Shown piece by piece: positions 17,449 to 51,159 of a stretch of DNA of 64,000 nucleotides; positions within the stretch are counted from its first letter, which is position 1, and the number at the start of each line of letters is the position of its first letter. The position numbers and the translations under genes are program-made. The stretch covers positions 1-64,000 of the forward strand of contig JAPMOS010000015.1 in the NCBI GenBank assembly GCA_027972325.1, written 5' to 3'. The notes under the pieces were generated by a model. It was given only the letters and a program-made list of their open reading frames with translations, was not told the origin of the DNA and made no database searches. This DNA is from Paratrimastix pyriformis. Taxonomy: Eukaryota > Preaxostyla > Paratrimastigidae.

Positions 17449-18335
17449 TTAGTGGGCCAGCGGCAGCTGCCAGGCGGCGCCCAGAAGCTCCGCCTCGGCA
17501 CCGGCGAGGGTGAGTGCCCCATCGGGGCGGAGCGACACCCGGAGGACGGCACCGCTGGGGGCATGCGAGCAACGAACGACCGTCAGCTCGAAGCAATCCG
17601 GGGCGACGCCCGCGCGCAGGGAGCCGAAGGCGAAGAAGGAAGTGCGGGCCGAGGCGGCGGCCTCCTCGAGGGTCGCCGCGGCGGGGTTCTCGGAGCTGAA
17701 GGCCCACCGGGCCCGATTGGGGGCGAACAGTTGCACGGCAGCCGTGCCCGAGGCTGGGTCGCAGGCCCAGTGGCCGGAGGCGCCGCTGGCCTGGGCGAGC
17801 AGGCGAGCTCCGCCCAGCGGGAAGGAGGCCCCCAGGACGGGAGCCAACCCAGCGGGCTGCTTGACCCGGGCCCAGACCAGCCGGGCGACCAGGCCCACGG
17901 GCCCGCGGGGCACCGTTTCGAGGGTCAGCCGATCGGTGGCCGGATCCCAGCGGGCCAGGCGGATCTGTTCGGTCCCCGACATGTGCGGGTTGGTGCACTG
18001 GTGGCACTGGTGGTGCAGCATCAGCCGAGTGCCCGCGTCCGTCGCCGCCGAGTGGGTGTAGTGGGAGTAGTAGGCCAGAGAGGCATAGAAATTGGCGAGG
18101 ACATCGCCGGGGGTCTGGTGGCCGTACAACTGGGCCGACATGGTCTGGCTAGCGGCGTTGTAATACAGAAGGCCCGTGGCCTCGGGGCCGAAGTGGGACG
18201 GCATGACCATGGCCCCGTCGTTCATAACGGTGGCACTCTCGACCAGCCTGCAGAGCCGTGGGGGGAAGCAAGTGATGAACAACTCACCATACGAAACCAT
18301 ACGAAGAAGACACGGCGCGACAGAGGGAAGAAAAC
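17449..18335 (-). other. Megasynthase C-terminal lipocalin-like domain
   Basis: After the thioesterase the frame reads EGFWT, then across an intron (donor GTCTGT) LVESATVMNDGAM, PSHFGPEATGLLYYNA, TMSAQLYG, then FYASLAYYSHYTHS and EQIRLARWDPATDRLTLE. The pattern G-x-W-x-L-V, P-x-G-x-L-x-Y, MSxQL, YxxY matches the lipocalin-like family (Pfam Lipocalin_5 style), which binds small hydrophobic molecules or acts in natural-product pathways. Stop TAA at 17449. The last ~150 residues, rich in Ala, are unassigned. Confidence 0.65.
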
Positions 18336-21300
18336 AGACGTCCAGAAGCCTTCCAGTGTGGGGAACTGCGCAGTGGGGGCAGGCGCCTTCGACAGGGCGG
18401 CGGTGAAGACGGCAAAGAGGGCGTTGGGCGGGTAGAGGCAATAAAAGTGCGCGCCTTGCAGCTGCGTGCACTTGAACGAGGCCGGCTGCTGGCTGACCCG
18501 GTACCACATCCCGATCGCGTCCGAGTCCAGCACCACCGTGTCGTGGTCCGCATAGAAGGACTGCACTGGGCAGGCGAGCTGGCGGGGCAGAGGGCAAGTG
18601 CGGTAGTGCTGCCCGTAGGAGGAGAGCAGCCTGGCGTCATTGACCAGGTATTCGTCCGACAGGCGAGGGGCCGTGGGCGGGGGGGTCCAGCGGGCCAGGT
18701 CAACCAGGCGAAGGACGCTGTCCGTGTCTGTGGCCTCGAGGACCGCAGTCATGGGCCAGTTCATGCAGGCGCCAGCGCAGCACATCGGCTCGGCCACAGC
18801 ACCCGCGCAGAAGAGCGAAGGGGCAGGCAGGAGGCCGCTCTTCAGGACCATGCGGGTGAACTCGTAGGCGACGAGGCCGCCCAGCGAGTGGCCATAGACC
18901 ACGTAGGGAACAGCGGGGCCACGAGACGCCATGGCAGCGGCGCCCTTGGCGAGGACCTCAAGCAGGGTCGACCAGGTGGCAACAGGCTCAGCCGAGGCAC
19001 ACAGCCACACCTCCACACCGGCAGCCGCCAGACGGGACGGCCAGGCGGCGAAGGCGGACGAGCCCATGCCCAGCGGGGGGAAGACGAGCAGCCGCGAGCG
19101 CAGGGCGGTCGGGCTGAGAGCCTGGATGGGCCCAAAGAAGCGAGAGTCCTCGGGAATGGAAAGGGCGGCCACGGCCGGGCTGGGCGAGAGGGATGCCCCG
19201 GGGAGGGTGGGCGAGGGGACCGGGGTGGTCGAAGGCGGGACGGGGAGGGTCGCGGTCAGGTGCTGGGCCAGGGCGGCCGGGGTGGGGTAGCGGATGACAA
19301 AGTCCACGGGCAGATCGGCCGAGGTCAGCGCGGGGAAGGCTGCAAGCAGGCGCTGGTGCAGTTGCAGGACGACCAGGCTGTCCACGCCACTCTGATCGAC
19401 GAAGTTCAGGTGCGCGTCGTCCGACGCGTCCGGGGCAACGGCCGCCAGGCAGCTGAGGATCTGCTGCAGCGGGGTGAGCGGACCACTCGAGGCGGCCAGG
19501 GCAGCCGTTGCGGCGGGTTGGGCGGGGGTGGGGGCGGCGCGGCGCGGCTTGGCCGCGATGGTGATGTGCTCGCGTGTCTTCTCCCAGCCCGCGCATTGGA
19601 CCACGGCCAGGGTCGAGGAGCCCAGGATGGGGACGTCGGGTGATGTGCACACGAAGGAGGCGGGGCTGGCGATCTGGCCCAGTGAGGTGAAGAGCTCGCG
19701 CCAGCGGTCGACCGACATGCCGGGGAAGCGGTTGCCCTTGCGCCAAGGGTCGGAGCAAGTCTCGAACAGTTGCCAACCTGAAACGGAATGGACGAAACGG
19801 GATGGGCGGTGCGGAGTGGTTGGCGATGAGGAGAGGAGCAAGCAGACCCTCAGTGGTGCCCACCGTGACGTCCAGGAAATGGGTCGGCTTGGTCACCTCG
19901 ACCAGCATGAAGAGTCCCCCTGGGCGCAAATAAGCGCAGCCGTGCTCCACCGTGAAGGCGATGCTTCCCGTGGTGTGCATGACATTGTTGGCGATGATGA
20001 TGTCGTAGGAGCCCAGGGGAACCGATCCGGTGGGCTGCTTCGAAATGTCCAGAATCTTGTACTCAATCCAGGGGTACTTGGTCTGCCACTCGGCGCGGGC
20101 TTGGCTCAGGAAGAAGTTCGAGATATCGGTGAAGGTGTACGTCAGCCGGGTGGGTCCCACCACGGCCGTCAGCATATCGAGCAGATGCGAGGTGCTGCTG
20201 CCCGTGCCACCACCAATCTCCAGGATGCGAACATGAGGCGCAGCGGCACCCGGCAACCTGGAGCAGCGAAAACACCAAAGAAGGCAACGAGAGATGATCG
20301 GTATGGTGACACCGGGCATGCAGACCGCTCCTTGGCCGCCGCCAGGATGCGCTCGAGGGCCGTGCGGACAGCCCGGTTGAAGGAGGTGAGCGCCACACCG
20401 GTCCGGTAGAACTTGGTAAAGGTGTCGTCATCGAACAGGACCGAAGTGGCTGCCGTCCGGCCCGTCAGAATCGAAGACAGAACGCGGCCGCACTTCGCCA
20501 GAACCTGCTCGTCACGAAGTTGAGAGAAGGGATGCGCGGAATTGGGCTGCAGACAATGAAGTCAGGCTGCGAGGTGAGCACCGCATGATGCTTCTCTTCA
20601 AAGGCCTGCGCGGGAAGAAGCTTCTCGGAGGCCTTGGCAACCACCACCCAGCTGTCCTTGGCCGCGTCTTGGGCCCGAAGGACGCCCGCATCGGCGAGCA
20701 GCTCCAGATAGCGAGGGAAGCCAGCGCGGTGGACGGGATGTGGATCGATGTGGCACATCTCGGCGGCCTCGGAGGTCGTGAACGTGGAGGCGACGGTGTT
20801 CAGGGGCAGGCCAAGCTCGAGCAGAGCATCAGCAATATAGCAGTGCGCTGGGAATGTCAGGAGAGAAAACAAAGACAGTGATCATGAGGAGGCGCGTTTG
20901 AGGTGAGCAAGAGACGGACAGAGAGTTTCAAAGACGGGCGTGAATTCATGGTAGGCCTTGAGGTCGTGCGACCGGTACTCCTTCAGCAGGGCGTCATCCA
21001 GCTCGGCAGCTGCGGGCAGGGCCAGATGAAGCCGAGTCTGCTTCAAGGGCGCGCCCGTAAAAGGATAATGCAGAGGCAGCCGAAGCAACCCGCCGCCCTC
21101 CTCCTCGGGAACCCAGGCCAGGGTGGAGGTGGGGTCGGCGCTGCGCCAAACGAAGCCGACCGCATCAAGCAGAGCGAACATCTCGTCCCGCTCGGTCGGC
21201 ATGGCGTCCTTGAGACGGGGCAGGCAGCTGACAGCGCCCCTCAGATTGACGCCACGGGGGCCCATCTCGACCAGCACCGAGCAGGCCATGGCCTCCACGG

Positions 21301-24300
21301 CCGGGGCGTAACGAACACAGCCGCACAGTTGGCGCTGGGTCCAGTAGGTCGGATCGGTGGCATCAGCGTCCGTCATGCGGAGACCTGATGATGGCAGCAG
21401 GCGGATGAAGACGCGATGTGAGAAGGAGGAGGGGGGAGGGAAATGGAGGGGACGGACCGGTGCATGTGGAAAAGAGCTGAACGGGTCGGTTCAGCAGGGC
21501 CGGGGGAATGCCCACCTGCTGGACCAGTTCCTCGGGAACATGAATTCGCCCATCCGCCGAATGGAGGTCGATCGAAGCGAAGGCCGCCGCGAGAGGCTCC
21601 GACGCAGCCCCCATGTAGTACGGGCAATGGAAGGCCGCAGTGGTTTTCAGGGGAGTGCAGACAACCTCGGGATGGGTGGCCTTGAGATGGGCAACAAGCG
21701 CCTCCTGGGCCGCGGGCGACCCGCTGAAGACACACTGCGTCGCCGAGTTGACCGCCGCAAGGGCCAGAGCGGGCTGGGTCTGAGAGACGTGAGCAAGGAC
21801 ATCACGGGCTTCCGGCTCTCCAAGGCTCACGGCAACCATCGTGCCCCAGTGGTCGCGAGTGGCCCCACGAGTCAGAAGAGCGTGGGCCATGGCGTGACCG
21901 CGGGCGATGACCGCCTTGAGGGCCTCGGACAGGCTGAAGACGCCCGCCAGGCAGGCCGCCACATACTCGCCGATGCTGTGGCCCAGCAGGGCGTGAGGCG
22001 CCAGGCCCCAGTGGAGCCAGGTGAGAGCCAGGCCGTATCCCACAGTGAACAGGGTCGCTTGGATGCGGGGCATGCGCTCCTCGATGGCCTCGGAGTCCGC
22101 CGGGGTGAACATGACCTTGGCGAGGTGGGCCTCTCCAAGGGACTCGATGACCTTGAGGCAAGCAGTGACGGCTGCGCGGTAGCAAGGCAGAACCTCCATC
22201 AGGTGGGCACCCAGGGCAGGGGTGTACACTTGCTGACCCGGGAAGACCATGGCCGTTTGGTGTGGGCGGGATGCTGCAGCAGGGAAGTCGGCCTGGGAAT
22301 CGGCCAAGTCCTTGAGTCCAGTCAGCAGCTCAGCCACCGAGTCTGCATGGACAGCTGCCCGAACGGCAAGGCGGGGCCGTGCATTGAGGGTCCGTTCCAG
22401 CAGCGTCAGGAAAGCCTGCTGGCCTGCCTCGGTGGCCATGGCGGCAGATTCGACCATGACCCACTCCAGCAAAGCGCCGGCCATGGCCTTCAGCTGGGCA
22501 TCGGTGGCCGCCGAGAGGACCATGAGGTGATATTTGTTGGCGGATGGGGCAAATTTGGCGGCGGGGGCCTGCTCCAAGACGACATGCGCATTATTGCCAC
22601 CTGCCGGGGAAAAGGCGTATTCAGCGGGGGATGTGACGGAATTCATGGTGCCAGACCGATGCCAAAGGAGGACACGCCGGCGTAGATAGGGCTGCCCGGG
22701 AGAGCCAGATCGGCCAGGGATTTCTTTGTCGTGTGTACCACCAGAGGTGCCAAGCCAGCACTTGGGGCAAGCGCAGCCGGCGAGCAAAGGCGCAGCCCCG
22801 GATGCGGAACCTCGTGACCGGCAGGAGCGGGGAGGGTGGCATGCTCAAGACAGAGCACGGCCTTGATCAGCCCCGCAAGACCGGCAACCTGTTGGGTGTG
22901 ACCGATGGAGCCCTTGCACGAAGAGACTGCAATCGGAGGACGCTGTGCCAGAGCGCTGGATGAAGAGGCGGCCTGGACCAGCGCCTGGGCGAGAGAGGTC
23001 GCTTCGATGGCGTCACCCAATGAGGTGGCCGTGCCATGGGCTTCGACGAAGGCCAGCTGTTCGGAGGCGATGTGGGCATCGGCCAATGCCTGCGATGCAA
23101 CACCAACAGAACGGAGAAGATGTTATCGAAAGCAGGCCCAGAACACTGCGGCTCTCATCGTACGGGAAGCTCGAGACGGACCTTGACGACAACTTGCTGT
23201 TGGCCATCAACGGCCGGCGCGGCGAAAGTGAGCCGCTGCGGCCCGTCGTTGGTGACGGCCGAACCGCGAATCAGCGCCCGCACGGGGCGGCCCTGCGCCA
23301 AGGCGTCCGAAAGGCGCATGAGCACAACCGCAGCTGTGCCCTCAGTGAACACGGTCCCGTCGGCGCGTGAGTCGAAGGGCATCACACTGCCCTTGGCGCT
23401 CATCATGGCTGCAGCCTGATAGCCGCGCCGGGGTCGAGGGGCCAGGCTGCATGAGCCCACGACGGCCATTGCACATTCGCGGCGGCGAAGCGAATGTAGG
23501 GCGTGATGAACGCCCACCAGAGAACTGCTGCAAGCCGTTTGGATGTTGATGGCGGCTCCGCGGAGACCTGGAAAGACAGAGAAAATGAGGCGGAAGCGAT
23601 AGAGCGGAAACGGACCCATGAGATAGGCGATCCGCGAGACGGCCAGATCACGATCATGGCCCACCATGACGTTGAAGTGTTCCTCGAAGGGCAGCTGGCC
23701 AGCGAGGTCGCTCGAATCCATGGCACCAAGGGATCCGTACAGCGAGATGTCGCCCTGTTGCATCTGGAAGCGCACCGCATCGACGTTGGCGTCCTCGAGG
23801 GCCATCCAGCAACTGTGTGCCAGAACCCGGACGTGCGGGTCGAGGGTCTTCTTGGCCTCCGCCGTGCTGAGCTTCCTGTGGGTTGAATGAGGTTGGCACG
23901 GATGGGGATGCGATGAGATCGATCAGACCAGAAGGTGGGATCCCACGAATCCAAACCAGGGACGCGGTTGTCCGAGAGCCAGCCGCCCCGCTTGACATAT
24001 TGCGGGTCCTGGCCAAGGGGAGAAACAGGAAGTGCAGGTGGACGACAAAACGAGTGTGACAACGAACCGCGATCTCGGCGGGCGACAAGCCAGAAGCCTC
24101 CAACTCAGCCGGGGTCAGGGTTTCGAGGCACTCGACGCCCGCGACCAGGGCATCCCAGAACTCCTCGGCCGAGGCGCATCCCGCGAACGCGCAGCTCAGA
24201 CCAACAATGGCAATCGGCTCGTCGGGTTGGGTGGGAGCAGGGGCAGGTTTGGGGACGGAAGGAACGACGACATTTTGGGAAAGCCAGGCGGCCTGGGTAT

Positions 24301-25767
24301 TGATCGAGGTGTACTGGAAGAGGAGGGCGATCGAAAAGCTGGTCTGGAATTCGCGTTCGAGCCGGTCGTGAAGCTCGACAATCCTCAGGCTGCTTCCACC
24401 GCACTCGAAGAAACTCACTGTCGGATCGATCGGGCCCTGCTAGGAGGAGGATGGGATGACCAGGAGATGCGTCGAGGTGAGACAGACCGCAGGGCCGAGA
24501 ACCAGTTTCCAAAGGGCGGCCACGCGCTCGAAGATCGACGCGCCAGGAGGAGCGACAGATTCAGGGGCGGGGAGAGCTGGAGCAATAGCCGGAGCAGGCG
24601 CAGGTGCAGCCACTGGTGCAGGCGAAGGAACCACTGGCGCGGGGGCGGCTTGAGGAGCCGGAGCAGCAGGGCGGGTCTGAGGGTTAGCTGCGGAGCAGGA
24701 CTTGTACAGGGCGGTCAGGGGCTCGAGGAAGGAGGCCTTGACCATGGCGCGCTTCAACTTCCGGGTGGGGGTCAGGCAGGACGGGGTGATCGAATCGGGC
24801 AGCAGCAGCACACCCAGAGGATGCTAATAAACAGGAAACACAAAGGCAAAAGGGTTGAGGCGAACCGGAGAAAGGCCAGATTGCTGGAGAGGGCTGCCAG
24901 CCAATGAGGGGCGACAGACCAGCTGGGGTGTGATGCCGGCCCGCTTGCACTGCTCCACCAGCTGCTGCAGCACGAAGCGGTTGGTGGCCGGGTGCTCGCA
25001 GATGTGCTTCAGCAGGTCCGCCGGGACTGCGGGCACAGGGGACTGCTGCTGCTGCTGTTGCTGCTGTTGCTGCTGCAGTTGGGCCTGGGCGGCAGCCACA
25101 GCAGCCGTCGCGGTGGTCAGCCACGCCTCGACGGCCGGGTCGGCACTCAAGAGGTGCTTGCCCGCGCGGAAGAGCCACTCGCGAAGGACCTCCTCGCGAG
25201 GCTCGACCAGCACAACTAAGCGCACGGGCAGAGACGCAAGAATTGATGGAGGGTTGGTGGCGCATGAGGGGAGATGATGGGGGGCGAACGCGCAACGCAA
25301 CGGAGCATCACAGCGGAGCAAAACGGCAGCCACAGCAGAGCACCACCGCAGCAGACCGACGCCCTCCCAGAGGGGCTCCGCATACGAGGCGCAGTTGGCC
25401 ACCACCGGGCACAGGCGCAGCTCGTTCTCGAGCTCGTCGGGCACGAAGAACTCCCCGTTGCTCAGCTTGATGACGTCGCCCACGCGCCCGTGCAGGCGGA
25501 CGTTCCCCCGGGCCGTCAGCTCGCCCGCGTCGCCCGTGTGGAACCAGCCCTCGGCGTCCAGGTGCGACCCGAAGGGCCGCCGGAAGTAGCCCCCGAAGAG
25601 GCCCGGCCCCCGCACGCAGATCTCGGTCAGTTTGGTATCGGGCACGGCCACCAGCCGCACGTCGACCCCCTCCGGGATCCGGCCCACCGTCCCGCACTCG
25701 GCCTCGTTGGGGTGCGTGCAGCTGATCACGGCGTGTTCAGTCATCCCGTAGCCTGCGGGCGGGCGGG

Positions 25768-25809
<42 letters not shown>

Positions 25810-25999
25810 GTGGGTGAACGTGGCGGCGTGCGCGGGCGGGCGGGCGTGCGCGGGCGGGCGGGCGTGCGCGGGCGGGCGGGCGTGCGCGGGCGGGCGGGCG
25901 TGCGCGGGCGGGCGGGCGTGCGCGGGCGTGCGCGGGCGGGCGTGCGCGGGCGTGCGCGGGCGGGCGTGCGTGCGTGCGCGGGCGGGCATGGGGCAAGCA

Positions 26000-26031
<32 letters not shown>

Positions 26032-26698
26032 AGCAGCTGGGTAGAGACCGACCCTCCATGACGGCAGCCTCGGAGAGGACCCGGGCAAAGGTGCGCATGG
26101 CGGGCGGCAGGGGGGCGCTGCCAAAGCTGAAGTTGCGCACCCGCCCGCCCAGCGCCATCCGCGTCCGGCCCATCAGGCCCTCGTACAGCGGCGACAGGGT
26201 CGGCCGGGGGCCCTGGAAGGCTGCTGTGACACCAGCCGCGTCCGCCTGCTGCTGTTGTGGCTGCTGCTCGCCCGAGTCGTCGCCCACCCAGCGGCGCATC
26301 TTGGCGTAGTCGGCCCAGAAGAGCTGCTGCTGCGCCGGGGCAGGGCCTCGATGGCCCGCATCACCCGCCGTGCAGGGCCGCCAGCACCAGCGGCACCAGC
26401 ATCAGGTAGGTGGGCCGCAGCACGGGGATGTCGGCGAACATGGCGGCCGCGTCGCCCGACAGGAACCCGATCGAGCAGCCCCACCGGAACATGCGCACCA
26501 TGAAGTACCGCTCGAAGATGTGCGCCATGGGCATGTACGAGTAGTACACGTCGTCGGGCCTGGGTAGGTGGGTGGGTGGGGTGGGGTGGGGTGGGGTGGG
26601 GTGGGGTGGGGGGGGGGGGGGAGGGGAGGGGGGAGGGAGGGAGGGGAGGTGTGTGTGTGTGTGTGTGGGGGAGGGAGGAGGAGGTGTAATGAGGATGA

Positions 26699-26774
<76 letters not shown>

Positions 26775-29376
26775 TGGGAAGTGGGCAGTGCGGACTTGGT
26801 CTCCGCGCCGAAGCCCTGCTGCTGGCAGTACTCGTTGGTCAGCTGGGCCAGGATGGAGCGGTGCGTGATCATGACGCCCTTGGGGCTCCCCGTCGTGCCG
26901 CTGGTGTACACCACCGTCCAGACGGCCTCGGGCACGGGCAGGCGGGGCGTCCACGCGGCCACCCGGCCGGCGCCGGCCTGCTCGAGCTCCTCGAAGGTCA
27001 TCAGGGTCACGCCCTTGGACGCCGCCAGCCCACGCACGTCCGCCTCGAAGGCGGGCACCGTCCCATCGGCGGCCTGCATCGCTGGGGGCGTGTACGTGAT
27101 CAGCACCCGCAGAGGGCCGCTCGGCGGGGTCTGGGCGGCGGGCTGGGCGGCGGTGTTGTTGCAGCAGGCCAGCAGCAGCTTGAGCAGGCGCCGGTCGCAG
27201 ACGGCCGCCTCGGCGCGCGTCTCGCCCAGCACGTGGCCCACCATCTTCGGGGCCGCGTTCATGTACAGCGGCACGCTCACCACCGACAGGCCCGCGCAGG
27301 CCCAGTCGCACAGGGTCCACTCGGTGCAGTTGGGCATGCAGATCGCCAGGCAGGTCGGCTCGGTCCACTGGGGCCCCGGCACAGGAGCCTACGGAAAAAC
27401 GAACACTCGATGAGATAAGATCTATTCGGCGAGTGACCACTGCTTTTGAGGTCTTGTTTCTTGCGTGTCAAAGAACTCCTCTCTTCTTCCATTTCCGTCG
27501 TCCCTCAACTTGTGTTTGATTTTCGTTTGCGCTGCAGTCTCGGGGAGCAGGGCAGTGCGAATCACACGGAGAAACTGTGTCAAAAACGTGGAGCCCGTTC
27601 AGAATGATGGTTCCTCGGCCTAAAAGCAAGATCTAAGCTCCATTCTGGAATCTCCGAGGTTCTCTCCGCGAGTCCAAAGACAACAAAAACACCTCAAACA
27701 ATCGGACCCAGGCAAAGCTCCCTCATAAATCCACGTCTGGTCCAGCCCCTCCCCCTCCCTCCTCCCCCCCTCCTCCTCCTCCTCCTCCTCCTCCTCCTCC
27801 TCCTCCTCCTCCTCCTCCTCCTCCTCCTCCTCCTCCTCCTCCTCCTCCTCCTCCTCCTCCCTCCCCCTCCTCCAGCCCACCTCCCCTCCTCCAGCCCACC
27901 TCCCCTCCTCCAGCCCACCTCCTCCCCCACCTCCCTCCCCACCTCCCATCCCCACCTCCTCCCCCTCCCCCTTCCCCCCTTCCCCCTTCCCCCCCCCCCC
28001 CCCTTCCCCTTCCCCTTCCCCTTCCCCGCCTCCCCCTTGCCACTAAATTCAAGGCTTCAAATATAAAAAACCAAAAACCAACTGAAAGCACTCACGGCAC
28101 TTGGTCTGCTTTGAGACTCGTCCCAGGCCCAACCGACACATTCATCGTTCGCCTTGAAGGATGTGCTTCAGGTGAAGCTAAACAGAAATAATGTGCCTTT
28201 GCATTGGTGATACGATGTGCTCTTCGCTTTGCCGTTGGCCGACCTGTTCGCTGCTGCCTGCTTGCGGATGTTGGCCTGGCGGACACTGCTTGACTATGGC
28301 GCTTCCCTTGTGGACTGTGCCTACACTTCTTGCGGTGTCTTTCCTCTCTCTTCTTTTGGTGTGCGTGTGCGTGTCGTAAAGAAGGAACGGAGTCACGGAA
28401 AAACAAAGGAGAGGTAGAAGTGGACGTGTGTGTGTGTGTCGTGTAAAGAAGGAACGAAGTAACGGGAAAATAAAACAAAAACCAGAGAGAGAGAGAGAGA
28501 GAGAGAGAGTGTGTGTGTGTGTGTGTGTGTGGGGGAAAGGAGAAGCATCACGGACCGGCCGAAATGCGATGCCGTGCTTGGCAAAGGTGGCTTCCAGTCC
28601 AGCAGCTACGAGCTTGACACGGTCGATGACCTGCTGGTAGGTCAGGAATGCATACGGAGCACCGGGGGTGGGCCGGGTCCCCTGGAAGGGTCGCTCCGCG
28701 TACTTGGGAGCGTAGCGCATGAAGTTCTCGAAGATGCTGGGGGCCAGGTTGAGGCGGGCAACCAGTTCGGCACGAGAGGGACCTTTCGCTGCCTCAGAGG
28801 CCGCAGGGGTGGATGCAATGGCGGGAGCTGCCGCGGGGACGGAGGGCAGAGCGTGACCACAGGACTTGTATAGGGCGGTGAGGGGGTCGAGGAAGGAGGC
28901 CTTGACCATGGCGCGCTTCAGCTTCCGGGTGGGGGTCAGGCAGGACGGGGTGATCGAATCGGGCAGCAGCAGCACCCCAAGGGGATGCTGCGCATCAAGA
29001 GGAAAACGGTGTGAATGAGCGCCAGCGCCACGAGGGTCGAAGAGTGAAAATGCAGCGTCATGTCAAATTAGGGTGTGTGTCATACAGAAGGAAAGAAGTA
29101 ACGGGTGTGGTGGATCAGACAAAATCGAGTGGGAACAATGGCCTCGTTGCGAACAACAGCCCTGAAAAAGCGCCGCAGAACACGTTCTCCTTCGCATTCC
29201 AGAGAGCCAAAAACAGAAAAGGGACGGGCGGGGAAAGCAAGAGGATGGGCAGACCAGCTGGGGTGTGATGCCGGCCCGCTTGCACTGCTCCACCAGCTGC
29301 TGCAGCACGAAGCGGTTGGTGGCCGGGTGCTCGCAGACGTGCTTCAGCAGGTCCGCCGGGACAGCGGGCACAGGGG

Positions 29377-29465
<89 letters not shown>

Positions 29466-31205
29466 AGCTGGGCCTGGACGGCGGCCACGGCAGCCGTCGC
29501 GGTGGTCAACCACGCCTCGACGGCCGAGTCGGCACTGAAGAGGTGCTTGCCCGCGCGGAAGAGCCACTCGCGAAGGACCTCTTCGCGGGGCTCGACGAGC
29601 ACAACTGCCCGCGCGGGCACATACACGCAGGGACGGAGAGGGAGAGGAAGAATTGATGAGTGGGGATGAGGGTTTGGGTGCATGAGGGGAGATGATGGGG
29701 GGCGAACGCGCAACGCAACGGAGCAACGCAACGGAGCAACGGAGCAACGGAGCATCACAGCAGAGCATCACAGCAGAGCGCCACAGCAGAGCATCACAGC
29801 GGAGCGGAGCATCACAGCGGAGCGGAGCATCACAGCGGAGCAAAACGGCAGCCACAGCGGAGCAGCAGAGCACCACCGCAGCAGACCGACGCCCTCCCAG
29901 AGGGGCTCCGCATACGAGGCGCAGTTAGCCACCACCGGGCACAGGCGCAGCTCGTTCTCGAGCTCGTCGGGCACGAAGAACTCCCCGTTGCTCAGCTTGA
30001 TGACGTCGCCCACGCGCCCGTGCAGGCGGACGTTCCCCCGGGCCGTCAGCTCGCCCGCGTCGCCCGTGTGGAACCAGCCCTCGGCGTCCAGGTGCGACCC
30101 GAAGGGCCGCCGGAAGTAGCCCCCGAAGAGGCCCGGCCCCCGCACGCAGATCTCGGTCAGTTTGGTATCGGGCACGGCCACCAGCCGCACGTCGACCCCC
30201 TCCGGGATCCGGCCCACCGTCCCGCACTCGGCCTCGTTGGGGTGCGTGCAGCTGATCACGGCGTGTTCAGTCATCCCGTAGCCTGCGGGCGGGCGGGCGG
30301 GCGGGGGGGGGGGGGGGGGGGGGGGGGGTTGTGGGTGAACGTGGCGGCGTGCGCGGGCGGGCGGGCGTGCGCGGGCGGGCGGGCGTGCGCGGGCGGGCGG
30401 GCGTGCGCGGGCGGGCGGGCGTGCGCGGGCGTGCGCGGGCGGGCGTGCGCGGGCGTGCGCGGGCGGGCGGGCGTGCGTGCGCGGGCGGGCATGGGGCAAG
30501 CAGCAGCAGCAGCAACAACAACAACAACAACAGCAGCAGCAGCTGGGTAGAGACCGACCCTCCATGACGGCAGCCTCGGAGAGGACCCGGGCAAAGGTGC
30601 GCATGGCGGGCGGCAGGGGGGCGCTGCCAAAGCTGAAGTTGCGCACCCGCCCGCCCAGCGCCATCCGCGTCCGGCCCATCAGGCCCTCGTACAGCGGCGA
30701 CAGGGTCGGCCGGGGGCCCTGGAAGGCTGCTGTGACACCAGCCGCGTCCGCCTGCTGCTGTTGTGGCTGCTGCTCGCCCGAGTCGTCGCCCACCCAGCGG
30801 CGCATCTTGGCGTAGTCGGCCCAGAAGAGCTGCTGCTGCGCCGGGGGCAGGGCCTCGATGGCCCGCATCACCCGCCCGTGCAGGGCCGCCAGCACCAGCG
30901 GCACCAGCATCAGGTAGGTGGGCCGCAGCACGGGGATGTCGGCGAACATGGCGGCCGCGTCGCCCGACAGGAACCCGATCGAGCAGCCCCACCGGAACAT
31001 GCGCACCATGAAGTACCGCTCGAAGATGTGCGCCATGGGCATGTACGAGTAGTACACGTCGTCGGGCCTGGGTAGGTGGGTGGGTGGGTGGGGTGGGGTG
31101 GGGTGGGGTGGGGTGGGGAGGGGAGGGAGGGAGGGAGGGGAGGGAGGGAGGGAGGTGTGTGTGTGTGTGTGGGGGAGGGAGGGTGTGTGCGGGGCATGAG
31201 GATGA

Positions 31206-31277
<72 letters not shown>

Positions 31278-32187
31278 GGGGAGCGAGTGGGCAGTGCGGA
31301 CTTGGTCTCCGCGCCGAAGCCCTGCTGCTGGCAGTACTCGTTGGTCAGCTGGGCCAGGATGGAGCGGTGCGTGATCATGACGCCCTTGGGGCTCCCCGTC
31401 GTGCCGCTGGTGTACACCACCGTCCAGACGGCCTCGGGCACGGGCAGGCGGGGCGTCCACGCGGCCACCCGGCCGGCGCCGGCCTGCTCGAGCTCCTCGA
31501 AGGTCATCAGGGTCACGCCCTTGGACGCCGCCAGCCCACGCACGTCCGCCTCGAAGGCGGGCACCGTCCCATCGGCGGCCTGCATCGCTGGGGGCGTGTA
31601 CGTGATCAGCACCCGCAGAGGGCCGCTCGGCGGGGTCTGGGCGGCGGGCTGGGCGGCGGTGTTGTTGCAGCAGGCCAGCAGCAGCTTGAGCAGGCGCCGG
31701 TCGCAGACGGCCGCCTCGGCGCGCGTCTCGCCCAGCACGTGGCCCACCATCTTCGGGGCCGCGTTCATGTACAGCGGCACGCTCACCACCGACAGGCCCG
31801 CGCAGGCCCAGTCGCACAGGGTCCACTCGGTGCAGTTGGGCATGCAGATCGCCAGGCAGGTCGGCTCGGTCCACTGGGGCCCCGGCACAGGAGCCTAACA
31901 CAGAAAATGGTGAACAACGAGGCAAAACAAGACAGTGCACGGACGGGGCGGAAATGCACGTTGTGTGTTTCAAAAACGCTTTCAAGGCCAGCAGCCACAA
32001 TCTTAACACGGTCAATAATCTGTTGGTATGTCAAGAAGACGTACGGCGAAGCGGGGTTTTGACGAGTTCCCTGGAAGGGGCGCGCAGCATATTGTGGCGC
32101 ATACCGCATAAAATTCTCATAAATGGACGGCGCAAGATTCAATTTGGCAACCAACTCGGCTCTGGATGAAGATTTTTGCAATTCCAT
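17449..32187 (-). CDS. Hybrid double acyl-adenylating / single-module polyketide megasynthase
   Basis: One gene of about 14.7 kb and roughly 3,600 residues (my sum of estimated exons). Domain order: acyl-CoA-synthetase-like (ACSL) module 1, ACSL module 2, carrier protein, ketosynthase, acyltransferase, C-methyltransferase, carrier protein, thioesterase, lipocalin-like domain. Fusion is supported by unbroken frames across borders: module 1 tail to module 2 head (28975-28550), module 2 tail through an Ala/Pro linker to the carrier (24811-24450), carrier to ketosynthase (24418 onward), carrier to thioesterase to lipocalin (19785-18330 and next exon). Start ATG at 32187 (MELQKSSSRAELV). No KR, DH, ER or NRPS condensation domain is seen. 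Likely role: activate a carboxylic acid as acyl-AMP, load it on the carrier, extend once, C-methylate, and release it by hydrolysis. The product is unknown. The alternative that module 1 is a separate gene is less likely given the shared exon. Confidence 0.85.
18330..19780 (-). other. Megasynthase carrier protein 2 and thioesterase
   Basis: The carrier motif FVDQSGVDSLVVLQLHQRL (near 19370) supplies a second phosphopantetheine Ser. After a Pro/Ser/Thr-rich linker comes a type I thioesterase: LLVFPPLGMGSSAFAAW, nucleophile elbow YVVYGHSLGGLVAYEF near 18890, YADHDTVV near 18550, and GAHFYCLYPP near 18440, where the His is the expected catalytic one. The domain continues in the same exon into the start of the lipocalin-like domain. 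Confidence 0.88.
19780..20880 (-). other. Megasynthase C-methyltransferase domain
   Basis: SAM-dependent polyketide C-methyltransferase. SAM motif RILEIGGGTGSSTSHLLDM near 20200, then YTFTDISNFFLSQA near 20110, YKILDISKQP near 20060, YDIIIANNVMHTTGS near 19990, LRPGGLFMLVEVT near 19910, and VGTTEGWQLFE across an intron with donor GTCTGC. This is the canonical motif set for cMT domains, which methylate the alpha carbon of the beta-keto intermediate. Confidence 0.9.
20885..22630 (-). other. Megasynthase acyltransferase domain and linker
   Basis: Acyltransferase with TAMVFPGQQVYTPALG near 22240, nucleophile elbow GHSIGEYVAACLAG near 21970, and the His block TAAFHCPYYMG near 21610; then DPTYWTQRQLCGCVRYAP near 21340, a standard end-of-AT motif. 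A post-AT linker (RLPLHYPF) leads directly to the methyltransferase with no dehydratase between. Extender specificity cannot be called safely: the usual malonyl AFHS reads AFHC here. Confidence 0.88.
22630..24560 (-). other. Megasynthase carrier protein 1 and ketosynthase
   Basis: The carrier domain starts SIFERVAALWKLVLG and, after an intron (donor GTCTGT), continues QGPIDPTVSFFECGGSSL; the Ser before Leu is the expected phosphopantetheine site. The ketosynthase follows: EPIAIVGLSCAFAG, DPHVRVLAHSCWMALEDA, active-site Cys in INIQTACSSSLVG (near 23540), first His in AFVEAHGTATSLGD (near 23030), second His in SCKGSIGHTQQVAGLAG (near 22890). All three catalytic residues are present, so condensation should be possible. 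Introns here are short and ordinary. Confidence 0.9.
24995..25080 (-). repeat. Short polyQ tract in ACSL module 2
   Basis: A CAG/CAA mixture encodes about 12 Gln between AQL and SPVPAVP. The homologous site in module 1 carries a much longer and pure CAG tract (29381-29465). Same reading frame in both copies. Confidence 0.8.
25760..26055 (-). repeat. Intronic repeat stack in ACSL module 2
   Basis: On the coding strand, from donor GTCGGT: a CAG/CAA tract, then tandem units of GCCCGCCCGCGCAC type (about 25820-25985), then about 39 C (25769-25807), then the acceptor just before GGCTACGGGATGACTGAAC. The whole order is repeated in module 1 at 30290-30555 with different copy numbers. Confidence 0.9.
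26567..26790 (-). repeat. Intronic ACGC and CCCCA arrays in ACSL module 2
   Basis: About 18 units of GCGT (26700-26773), then GT, then GGGGT/GGGA units on the plus strand, ending at the acceptor before the exon that starts PDDVYYSYMPMAH. The matching array in module 1 is at 31070-31280. Confidence 0.9.
27757..27860 (+). repeat. (CCT)n microsatellite in megasynthase intron
   Basis: About 33 CCT units in the intron between exon 1 and exon 2 of module 2, followed by imperfect CCTCCAGCCCACCTC copies to about 27930. The poly-Glu, poly-Arg and poly-Gly frames on the minus strand here are repeat translations. Confidence 0.95.
28372..28490 (+). repeat. Interspersed intronic repeat, tandem copies in megasynthase intron
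   Basis: Two neighbouring copies of the family described at 12399: 28372-28420 (AAAGAAGGAACGGAGTCACG...) and 28440-28490 (AAAGAAGGAACGAAGTAACG...), the second running into GA and GT microsatellites. A core-only copy (GGAAAGAAGTAACGGG) is at 29079-29106 in another intron of the same gene. Confidence 0.8.
29381..29465 (-). repeat. Long pure CAG tract (polyQ) in ACSL module 1
   Basis: About 28-30 uninterrupted CAG codons on the coding strand, at the same site as the short, interrupted tract in module 2. The flanking sequence of the two modules is otherwise nearly identical, so the tract has expanded (or contracted) since the copies were last homogenised. Confidence 0.9.
30290..30555 (-). repeat. 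Intronic repeat stack in ACSL module 1
   Basis: Counterpart of 25760-26055: a CAG/CAA tract, GCCCGCCCGCGCAC-type units, a run of about 26 C on the coding strand (30303-30328), then the acceptor. Unit counts differ slightly from module 2, but the order and flanks are the same. Confidence 0.9.
31070..31280 (-). repeat. Intronic ACGC and CCCCA arrays in ACSL module 1
   Basis: Counterpart of 26567-26790, with GCGT units at about 31206-31276 and GGGGT/GGGA units at about 31080-31155 on the plus strand. Confidence 0.9.
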
Positions 32188-50836: not shown

Positions 50837-51042
50837 TAACAGGAGATCACAAAGGGTGGGATGTTCTTCTGTTTTTTTGGAACCAGATAAAAAAAAACTC
50901 TTCATACCGCAAGCCATCCCCTCCCCACCCCCGCAAAGGTGGTAGGGAGACGATCATCAAGGCCCCAAGAACCCCAGCGCCCCCGAAGGGACAGAGGGGC
51001 TCAATCGGAGGCCACCTTCCCGCTCAGAACGGCTTGCCATGA

Positions 51043-51159
51043 CGGTAATCGTCAGAGTTTTTGGTGTTGCCTTTATTGGAAAATAAAGGGTAAGAACGTA
51101 CTACAGAAATGATTCTGTACGAGTACGGTCTTAAGTTTTCACTTGGAACGGGCGCCCTC
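51043..51159. other. 3' flank of WD40 gene
   Basis: AT-richer stretch containing CCTTTATTGGAAAATAAAGG, a near-palindrome with AATAAA on both strands (about 51069-51090). It is a plausible poly(A) signal region for the minus-strand WD40 gene ending at 51160. Confidence 0.45.

What the first reader, a model, noticed from the sequence alone, without database searches (positions are those of the whole stretch)
17449..32187. A single-gene acyl-ligase/polyketide megasynthase with order A-A-ACP-KS-AT-cMT-ACP-TE-lipocalin
Seen: catalytic motifs for every domain, and reading frames that cross the domain borders without interruption. Known: fatty-acyl-AMP or CoA ligases loading a polyketide synthase occur in bacteria and some protists. 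Inference: I know of no described enzyme with two adjacent ACSL-type ligases feeding one C-methylating KS module and ending in TE plus lipocalin. It may make a previously undescribed alpha-methylated acyl product.
Basis: partly seen in the sequence, partly recalled or inferred. Interest (0 to 1): 0.95.

Follow-up and report, generated by a model that had tools for sequence, protein, structure and literature searches.

The report
Ligase-loaded polyketide synthase with lipocalin tail
An unidentified eukaryote carries one long gene for an enzyme that should activate an acid, extend it, add a methyl group and release it through an unusual thioesterase-lipocalin end; its second activating part is a near-identical copy of the first and is broken in this assembly.

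Summary
Pfam confirms AMP-binding, ACP, KS, AT, methyltransferase, ACP, thioesterase and Lipocalin_5 in that order; the methyltransferase is of the PKS C-methyltransferase kind (nearest CurJ, 7.9e-37). Two claims need correcting. (1) The two ligases are an internal duplication: 1,498 coding bases in three exons differ by one substitution and two single-base losses, whereas flanking exons are 72% and about 95% identical. (2) The frame is interrupted: the two losses break copy 2 as assembled, between ligase 1 and the PKS. I cannot tell assembly error from decay. A ligase feeding ACP-KS-AT-ACP is the layout of hispidin synthase and of FadD32/Pks13. The TE-lipocalin tail is not unique: a bacterial TE-lipocalin-lipocalin protein stands directly behind a PKS frame with three KS. 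Best reading: an acid is loaded, extended with malonyl, C-methylated without reduction, and released as a methylated 4-hydroxypyrone or an alpha-methyl-beta-keto acid. New variant of a known kind. The large protein database could not be searched, so uniqueness is untested.

The parts
17449..32187 (-). whole gene, ATG at 32187 to stop at 17449
   Evidence: neighbours
28860..32187 (-). ligase 1 (A1), exons 32187-31945, 31894-31302, 31067-30559, 30282-29887, 29604-29255 and the first part of 28987-28556; open
   Evidence: model; PF00501 4.7e-56; best NCBIfam model long-chain-fatty-acid--CoA ligase 2.5e-46, below its cut-off
28556..28987 (-). exon holding the end of A1, a linker and the start of A2 without a stop
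24696..28777 (-). ligase 2 (A2): N-terminal part 28777-28556, exons 27388-26796, 26559-26053 (frame lost here), 25752-25357, 25215-24920, C-terminal part 24823-24696
29815..31897 (-). near-identical duplicated tract, copy 1
   Evidence: 96.6% identity with 25293-27391 over 2115 columns, introns included
25293..27391 (-). near-identical duplicated tract, copy 2
24281..24529 (-). ACP1 (GGSSL), split by an intron
   Evidence: PF00550; coordinates worked out
22460..24220 (-). ketosynthase with TACSSS, EAHGT and GHT motifs, split by introns (low end approximate)
   Evidence: PF00109 2.5e-50, PF02801 9.5e-29
21200..22246 (-). acyltransferase (GHSIGE; AAFH, malonyl-like by recalled motif); ends approximate
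   Evidence: PF00698 4.4e-19; KS-AT against PDB
19650..20990 (-). C-methyltransferase with N-lobe (approximate ends)
   Evidence: PF08242 3.7e-13; CurJ C-MT 5thy 7.9e-37, citrinin PKS 5mpt 6.3e-25
19261..19486 (-). ACP2 (GVDSL), approximate ends
   Evidence: PP-binding has two stretches; motif
18436..19093 (-). thioesterase (GHSLGG)
   Evidence: PF00975 5.8e-12
17866..18349 (-). Lipocalin_5 domain, interrupted by intron 18339-18248
   Evidence: PF13924 9.4e-10; only match in the genome
17449..17865 (-). C-terminal region of uncertain relation; a second lipocalin was suspected, tests inconclusive
   Evidence: Pfam 0.23; 2 of 2000 shuffles score higher; direct alignment z 0.7

Best explanation
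One eukaryotic gene encodes a ligase-loaded, non-reducing, C-methylating type I PKS. The acyl-CoA-ligase-like domain adenylates a carboxylic acid (probably a fatty acid) and passes it to ACP1; the KS takes it and condenses it with malonyl placed on ACP2 by the AT; the cMT adds a methyl from SAM to the alpha carbon; no ketoreductase or dehydratase was found, so the beta-keto group stays; TE plus lipocalin release a hydrophobic product. I think a C-methylated 4-hydroxy-2-pyrone after two rounds most likely, with a one-round alpha-methyl-beta-keto acid close behind. The ligase was duplicated inside the gene and its core kept identical by gene conversion; copy 2 is broken in this assembly, either truly or by a sequence error in the repeat. 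Shown: gene structure by hand model, domain order, identity pattern, broken frame, resemblance of the TE-lipocalin tail to a bacterial PKS-linked protein. Inferred: substrates, number of rounds, product, lipocalin role, gene conversion.
For: Domain order and scores; cMT kinship; active-site motifs readable in the translation (their meaning is recalled). A1 scores best on a long-chain acyl-CoA ligase model and next on carboxylic acid reductase, both under their cut-offs; best PDB matches are an 'oxidoreductase' and carboxylic acid reductases. The ACP1-KS segment matches a generic PKS model best (2.5e-103) and the Pks13 model second (6.8e-81), both under cut-off. No interruption in the 2,523-base first piece or the 6,594-base PKS piece. 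Duplication: exon 2 593 of 593 bases identical, exon 3 507 of 507 aligned with 2 gaps, exon 4 395 of 396; flanking exons 71.6% (222-base part), 95.3% and 94.5%. Third-position GC 0.94-0.97 in A1 exons 2-5 against 0.51 in exon 1, 0.76 in exon 6 and 0.65-0.88 in the 13 exons of the PKS piece, as GC-biased conversion could leave. TE-lipocalin colinear with a bacterial TE-lipocalin-lipocalin protein: BLASTP 9e-25, 95 of 432 identical.
Against: No transcript or product data. The frame is broken in A2, so as assembled one protein cannot contain both A1 and the PKS. Splice sites were chosen by me by eye, partly with the emerging GTCYG donor pattern in mind (notably the intron at 20919-20848). High GC3 could mean a different origin of the ligase part instead of conversion. 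Fatty acid versus aromatic or other acid was not tested. Single extension versus iteration cannot be read from sequence.
Confidence: 0.6

Rival explanations
1. The working protein has one ligase: A2 is decayed, and splicing skips it (A1 exon 5 joined to the exon at 24823), giving A-ACP-KS-AT-cMT-ACP-TE-lipocalin, a hispidin-synthase-like order. (Compatible with the chemistry of the best explanation.)
For: Copy 2 lacks two bases in one exon; phase 0 at both 29255 and 24823; the PKS piece has no interruption over 6.6 kb, as if still used.
Against: Two losses in runs of one base, in a repeat whose exons otherwise differ by one base, also look like long-read errors that could not be polished (inference). 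No RNA.
Confidence: 0.3
2. Sequence or assembly artefact: the frame losses are errors in a real second copy, or, less likely, only one ligase exists and the repeat was expanded.
For: Near-identity of the tracts; only two copies in the assembly.
Against: Against pure expansion (about 0.05): N-terminal exons are only 72% identical and C-terminal ones about 95%; intron lengths and repeats differ; one exon joins A1 to A2. Nothing here argues against plain sequence errors.
Confidence: 0.4
3. Two separate genes: a stand-alone ligase and a PKS with its own ligase.
For: The frame break lies between A1 and the PKS.
Against: A1's last part and A2's first part are in one exon without a stop, with a matching donor.
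Confidence: 0.05

Closest known systems
Hispidin synthase (HispS, Neonothopanus nambi and relatives)
   Same: Single eukaryotic protein AMP-binding, ACP, KS, AT, ACP; acid loaded in cis; two malonyl rounds proposed (PMC9866795, passages read)
   Different: Takes caffeic acid; its five listed domains include no cMT, TE or lipocalin; one ligase
FadD32 / Pks13 (mycolic acid condensation)
   Same: A ligase loads ACP1 and one elongation follows on a two-ACP, KS-AT protein (PMC9210659, passages read) with thioesterase activity (PMC5509550, abstract in listing); ACP1-KS hits the Pks13 model second
   Different: Ligase is a separate protein and product goes onto polyols; no cMT or lipocalin (recalled); score far under the Pks13 cut-off
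CurJ and citrinin-PKS C-methyltransferase domains
   Same: Same domain kind by sequence (7.9e-37, 6.3e-25)
   Different: Different domains around them (recalled)
   Same: TE then Lipocalin_5 at the end of a PKS line; Pfam, BLASTP 9e-25
   Different: Separate protein; the PKS frame before it has no AT among its 19 Pfam families and a frame with an AT motif follows; two Pfam lipocalin stretches there, one here
Algal type I PKSs
   Same: Eukaryotic type I PKSs; that paper's domain key includes ligase, MT and TE (PMC4661987, passages read)
   Different: Lipocalin not mentioned in that paper (0 occurrences); the own genome gave no light-harvesting match

Membership tests
Type I PKS module | KS, AT and ACP in one chain with catalytic motifs | tested here: met
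   scores; motifs (meaning recalled)
PKS C-methyltransferase | sequence match across the cMT fold including the N-lobe | tested here: met
   query 31-366 on CurJ 59-376; the N-lobe Pfam HTH_51 was only 0.02, under cut-off
Hispidin synthase | AMP-ACP-KS-AT-ACP in one protein | tested here: inconclusive
   order met in the gene, with extra domains; frame broken in A2, so one protein is not shown
Hispidin synthase | hydroxycinnamate starter and pyrone product | not testable with these tools
   needs enzyme assay
Hispidin synthase | closest kinship of KS and ligase to HispS | not tested
   protein database switched off
Pks13 | NCBIfam NF040607 above cut-off | tested here: not met
   272 bits against 2100, for the ACP-KS part only
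Acyl-CoA ligase (ANL superfamily) | AMP-binding domain and C-terminal Lys motif | tested here: met
   LTPTRKLKR (role of the Lys recalled)
Long-chain acyl-CoA ligase | curated long-chain ligase model above cut-off | tested here: not met
   158 bits against 476, a prokaryotic model
Lipocalin_5 | PF13924 above cut-off | tested here: met
   39 bits against 25
Tandem lipocalin tail | second Lipocalin_5 stretch | tested here: inconclusive
   Pfam 0.23, under cut-off; beaten by 2 of 2000 shuffles; direct alignment reached by 212 of 1000 shuffles
Two independent loading ligases | two open, diverged ligase domains | tested here: not met

The most novel reading that the evidence does not exclude
TE followed by a Lipocalin_5 barrel is an undescribed chain-release unit shared by this eukaryotic PKS and a bacterial PKS, in which the lipocalin holds or cyclises the greasy chain as the TE frees it; and the eukaryotic enzyme keeps two ligase copies identical by gene conversion to double its loading rate.
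Probability: 0.25. Interest if true: 0.65.

Novelty: new variant of a known kind. Interest (0 to 1): 0.45.

Why it matters
It adds a C-methylating, lipocalin-ended variant to the eukaryotic PKSs that load their own acid, and points to TE-lipocalin as a release unit that could be tested in bacteria, where a 602-aa protein carries it. The duplicated ligase shows how gene conversion, or sequence errors in a repeat, can mimic a new domain architecture.

Tried and rejected
Tandem lipocalin at the C-terminus: suspected by eye and because the bacterial relative has two. Pfam gives 0.23; a profile of 24 bacterial sequences scores it above all but 2 of 2000 shuffles; the direct alignment to the bacterial second lipocalin is reached by 212 of 1000 shuffles. 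Left open, not claimed. A single-sequence fold of the lipocalin region gave pLDDT 37; not used. A 2,671-residue frame with a partial Lipocalin_5 in G030 runs through a masked stretch, so what it is joined to cannot be told; dropped. The genome-contig scan with the PKS part gave 2 loci at 24-25% identity; my motif scan saw only an AT-like motif there; not used. Plasmid searches: in the rows listed (15 of 49 and 15 of 21 records) only the TE part was matched (one looked at). Cluster around the gene: of the 200 stop-to-stop frames, 10 were scanned and 3 of 10 had any Pfam match; no cluster is shown, and most frames were not scanned. No KS tree was made. Organism not identified.

Full report
Observation. 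The gene lies on the minus strand, ATG at 32187, stop codon ending at 17449. I modelled it as two pieces because the middle is broken. Piece A (six exons, 841 aa) holds ligase 1, a linker and the N-terminal part of ligase 2; piece B (13 exons, 2,197 aa) holds the end of ligase 2 and everything to the stop. Both are open throughout. The 17 introns within the pieces are GT...AG, by my choice of sites; 15 of 17 begin GTCCG or GTCTG (counted). I used that pattern to settle some donors, so it is partly built in.

Domains. Piece A: AMP-binding 4.7e-56. Piece B: KS 2.5e-50 and 9.5e-29, two PP-binding stretches, AT 4.4e-19, Methyltransf_12 3.7e-13, thioesterase 5.8e-12, Lipocalin_5 9.4e-10, each above its Pfam cut-off; no KR, DH or ER matched at 0.01. 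Against solved structures the methyltransferase matches 7 distinct sequences, best the CurJ C-methyltransferase at 7.9e-37, then citrinin PKS, last LovB. KS-AT matches modular PKSs best (7zma, 3.2e-101) and Pks13 lower (9f48, 4.9e-59). Ligase 1 is nearest to an 'oxidoreductase' (6oz1) and carboxylic acid reductases, then malonyl-CoA synthetase, FadD5 and 4-coumarate ligases; in NCBIfam a long-chain acyl-CoA ligase model is best and carboxylic acid reductase second; none of the 25 shown of 89 reaches its cut-off. The lipocalin region has no sequence match in the PDB (0 at E up to 10).

The two ligases. Blastn aligns 25293-27391 with 29815-31897 at 96.6% including introns. Exons 2, 3 and 4 have 0, 0 and 1 mismatch over 593, 507 and 396 aligned bases, but copy 2's exon 3 lacks two bases in two places. 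Identity falls to 71.6% in the 222-base comparable part of the exon before and to 95.3% and 94.5% in those after. Introns 2 and 3 differ by 5 and 2 mismatches and by 28 and 30 gap columns. Third-position GC is 0.94-0.97 in A1 exons 2-5, 0.51 in exon 1, 0.76 in exon 6 and 0.65-0.88 in piece B. The simplest reading is an old internal duplication with later conversion of the core. As exons 2-4 carry the substrate-binding core (recalled for this superfamily), the two ligases would share a substrate. The losses put the frame out of step between ligase 1 and the PKS. They may be sequence errors in a repeat or true decay; no result here separates these. The linker exon shows that the fusion is not a chance neighbourhood. 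Because phases repeat, splicing could skip ligase 2 in frame.

Context. The window is the first 64 kb of a 712,539-base contig of a 56.06-Mb assembly in 495 contigs. The light-harvesting family gave 0 matches (its control rang in a cyanobacterium, no eukaryotic alga is among the controls), so the organism is probably not photosynthetic. The KS family gave 23 pieces on six contigs; AMP-binding gave 21 matches with only 14 of 113 candidates scored. Of ten window frames scanned, three had Pfam matches (LRR under cut-off, WD40, SDA1); I saw no gene cluster.

The tail. Lipocalin_5 has one match in the own genome. In bacteria it occurs in 25 of 398 genomes of the phylum of G001 (G001 is a beta-proteobacterium by its record title), in frames of 141-338 aa except one 602-aa protein in G104 and one frame in G030 that runs through a masked stretch. 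The 602-aa protein is TE plus two Lipocalin_5 stretches, follows a 4,632-aa PKS frame with three KS and no AT among its Pfam families, and precedes a frame with an AT motif, the layout of a trans-AT PKS (inference). The window tail aligns with it across TE and lipocalin (22% identity, 9e-25). For lipocalin 1 alone, 2 of 1000 shuffles reach the score. With the bacterial lipocalin part as query, 18 of 300 genomes of that order matched, 28 places, none but G104's in a frame over 393 aa.

How it probably works. By established PKS logic (recalled) and two papers: ligase to ACP1 to KS, malonyl by AT to ACP2, condensation, C-methylation, release. FadD32/Pks13 does the loading and one condensation with a separate ligase (PMC9210659, passages); hispidin synthase does it in one protein and is proposed to run two rounds (PMC9866795, passages). 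The lipocalin is proposed to hold or fold the hydrophobic chain; this is inference.

Novelty. Searches aimed at this order or at a TE-lipocalin unit were 20 of 71 papers listed; 4 of 4; 5 of 5; no paper held all five terms; neighbouring topics were 19 of 19; 8 of 8; 15 of 115; 8 of 15. I saw listings, and passages of four papers. None described it. I rate it a new variant of a known kind. On checking against the calls I changed the second lipocalin and the 'one protein' hispidin-synthase test to inconclusive; the odds did not need changing.

Noticed in passing
G000:C481:80000-89999 (L019): A 3,333-aa open stretch of a multimodular PKS carries in one frame two HMG-CoA synthase N-terminal and two C-terminal stretches and enoyl-CoA hydratase domains beside KS, AT and ACP (positions). 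A KS on the same contig (L007) is interrupted by a stretch with a stop codon that looks like an intron. This would be a beta-branching cassette built into a eukaryotic PKS.
   Followed up: partly
L055:17860-19665 (G104): Bacterial TE-Lipocalin_5-Lipocalin_5 protein directly behind a PKS frame without an AT match.
   Followed up: yes
window 17449-32187: Intron donors are mostly GTCCG or GTCTG (15 of 17) instead of the usual GTRAG (recalled); partly influenced by my own choices.
   Followed up: partly
G000:C463, C90, C64, C485, C146: AMP-binding matches in open frames of up to 5,272 aa suggest large NRPS genes; C146 has condensation, AMP-binding and KS matches in neighbouring frames.
   Followed up: no
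window 31206-31277, 26699-26776, 27746-28037: Introns of the ligases hold microsatellites (TGCG, 18 and 19.5 copies; a CCT-rich array).
   Followed up: no
window 50897-51132: U3 snoRNA on the minus strand, 101 bits.
   Followed up: no
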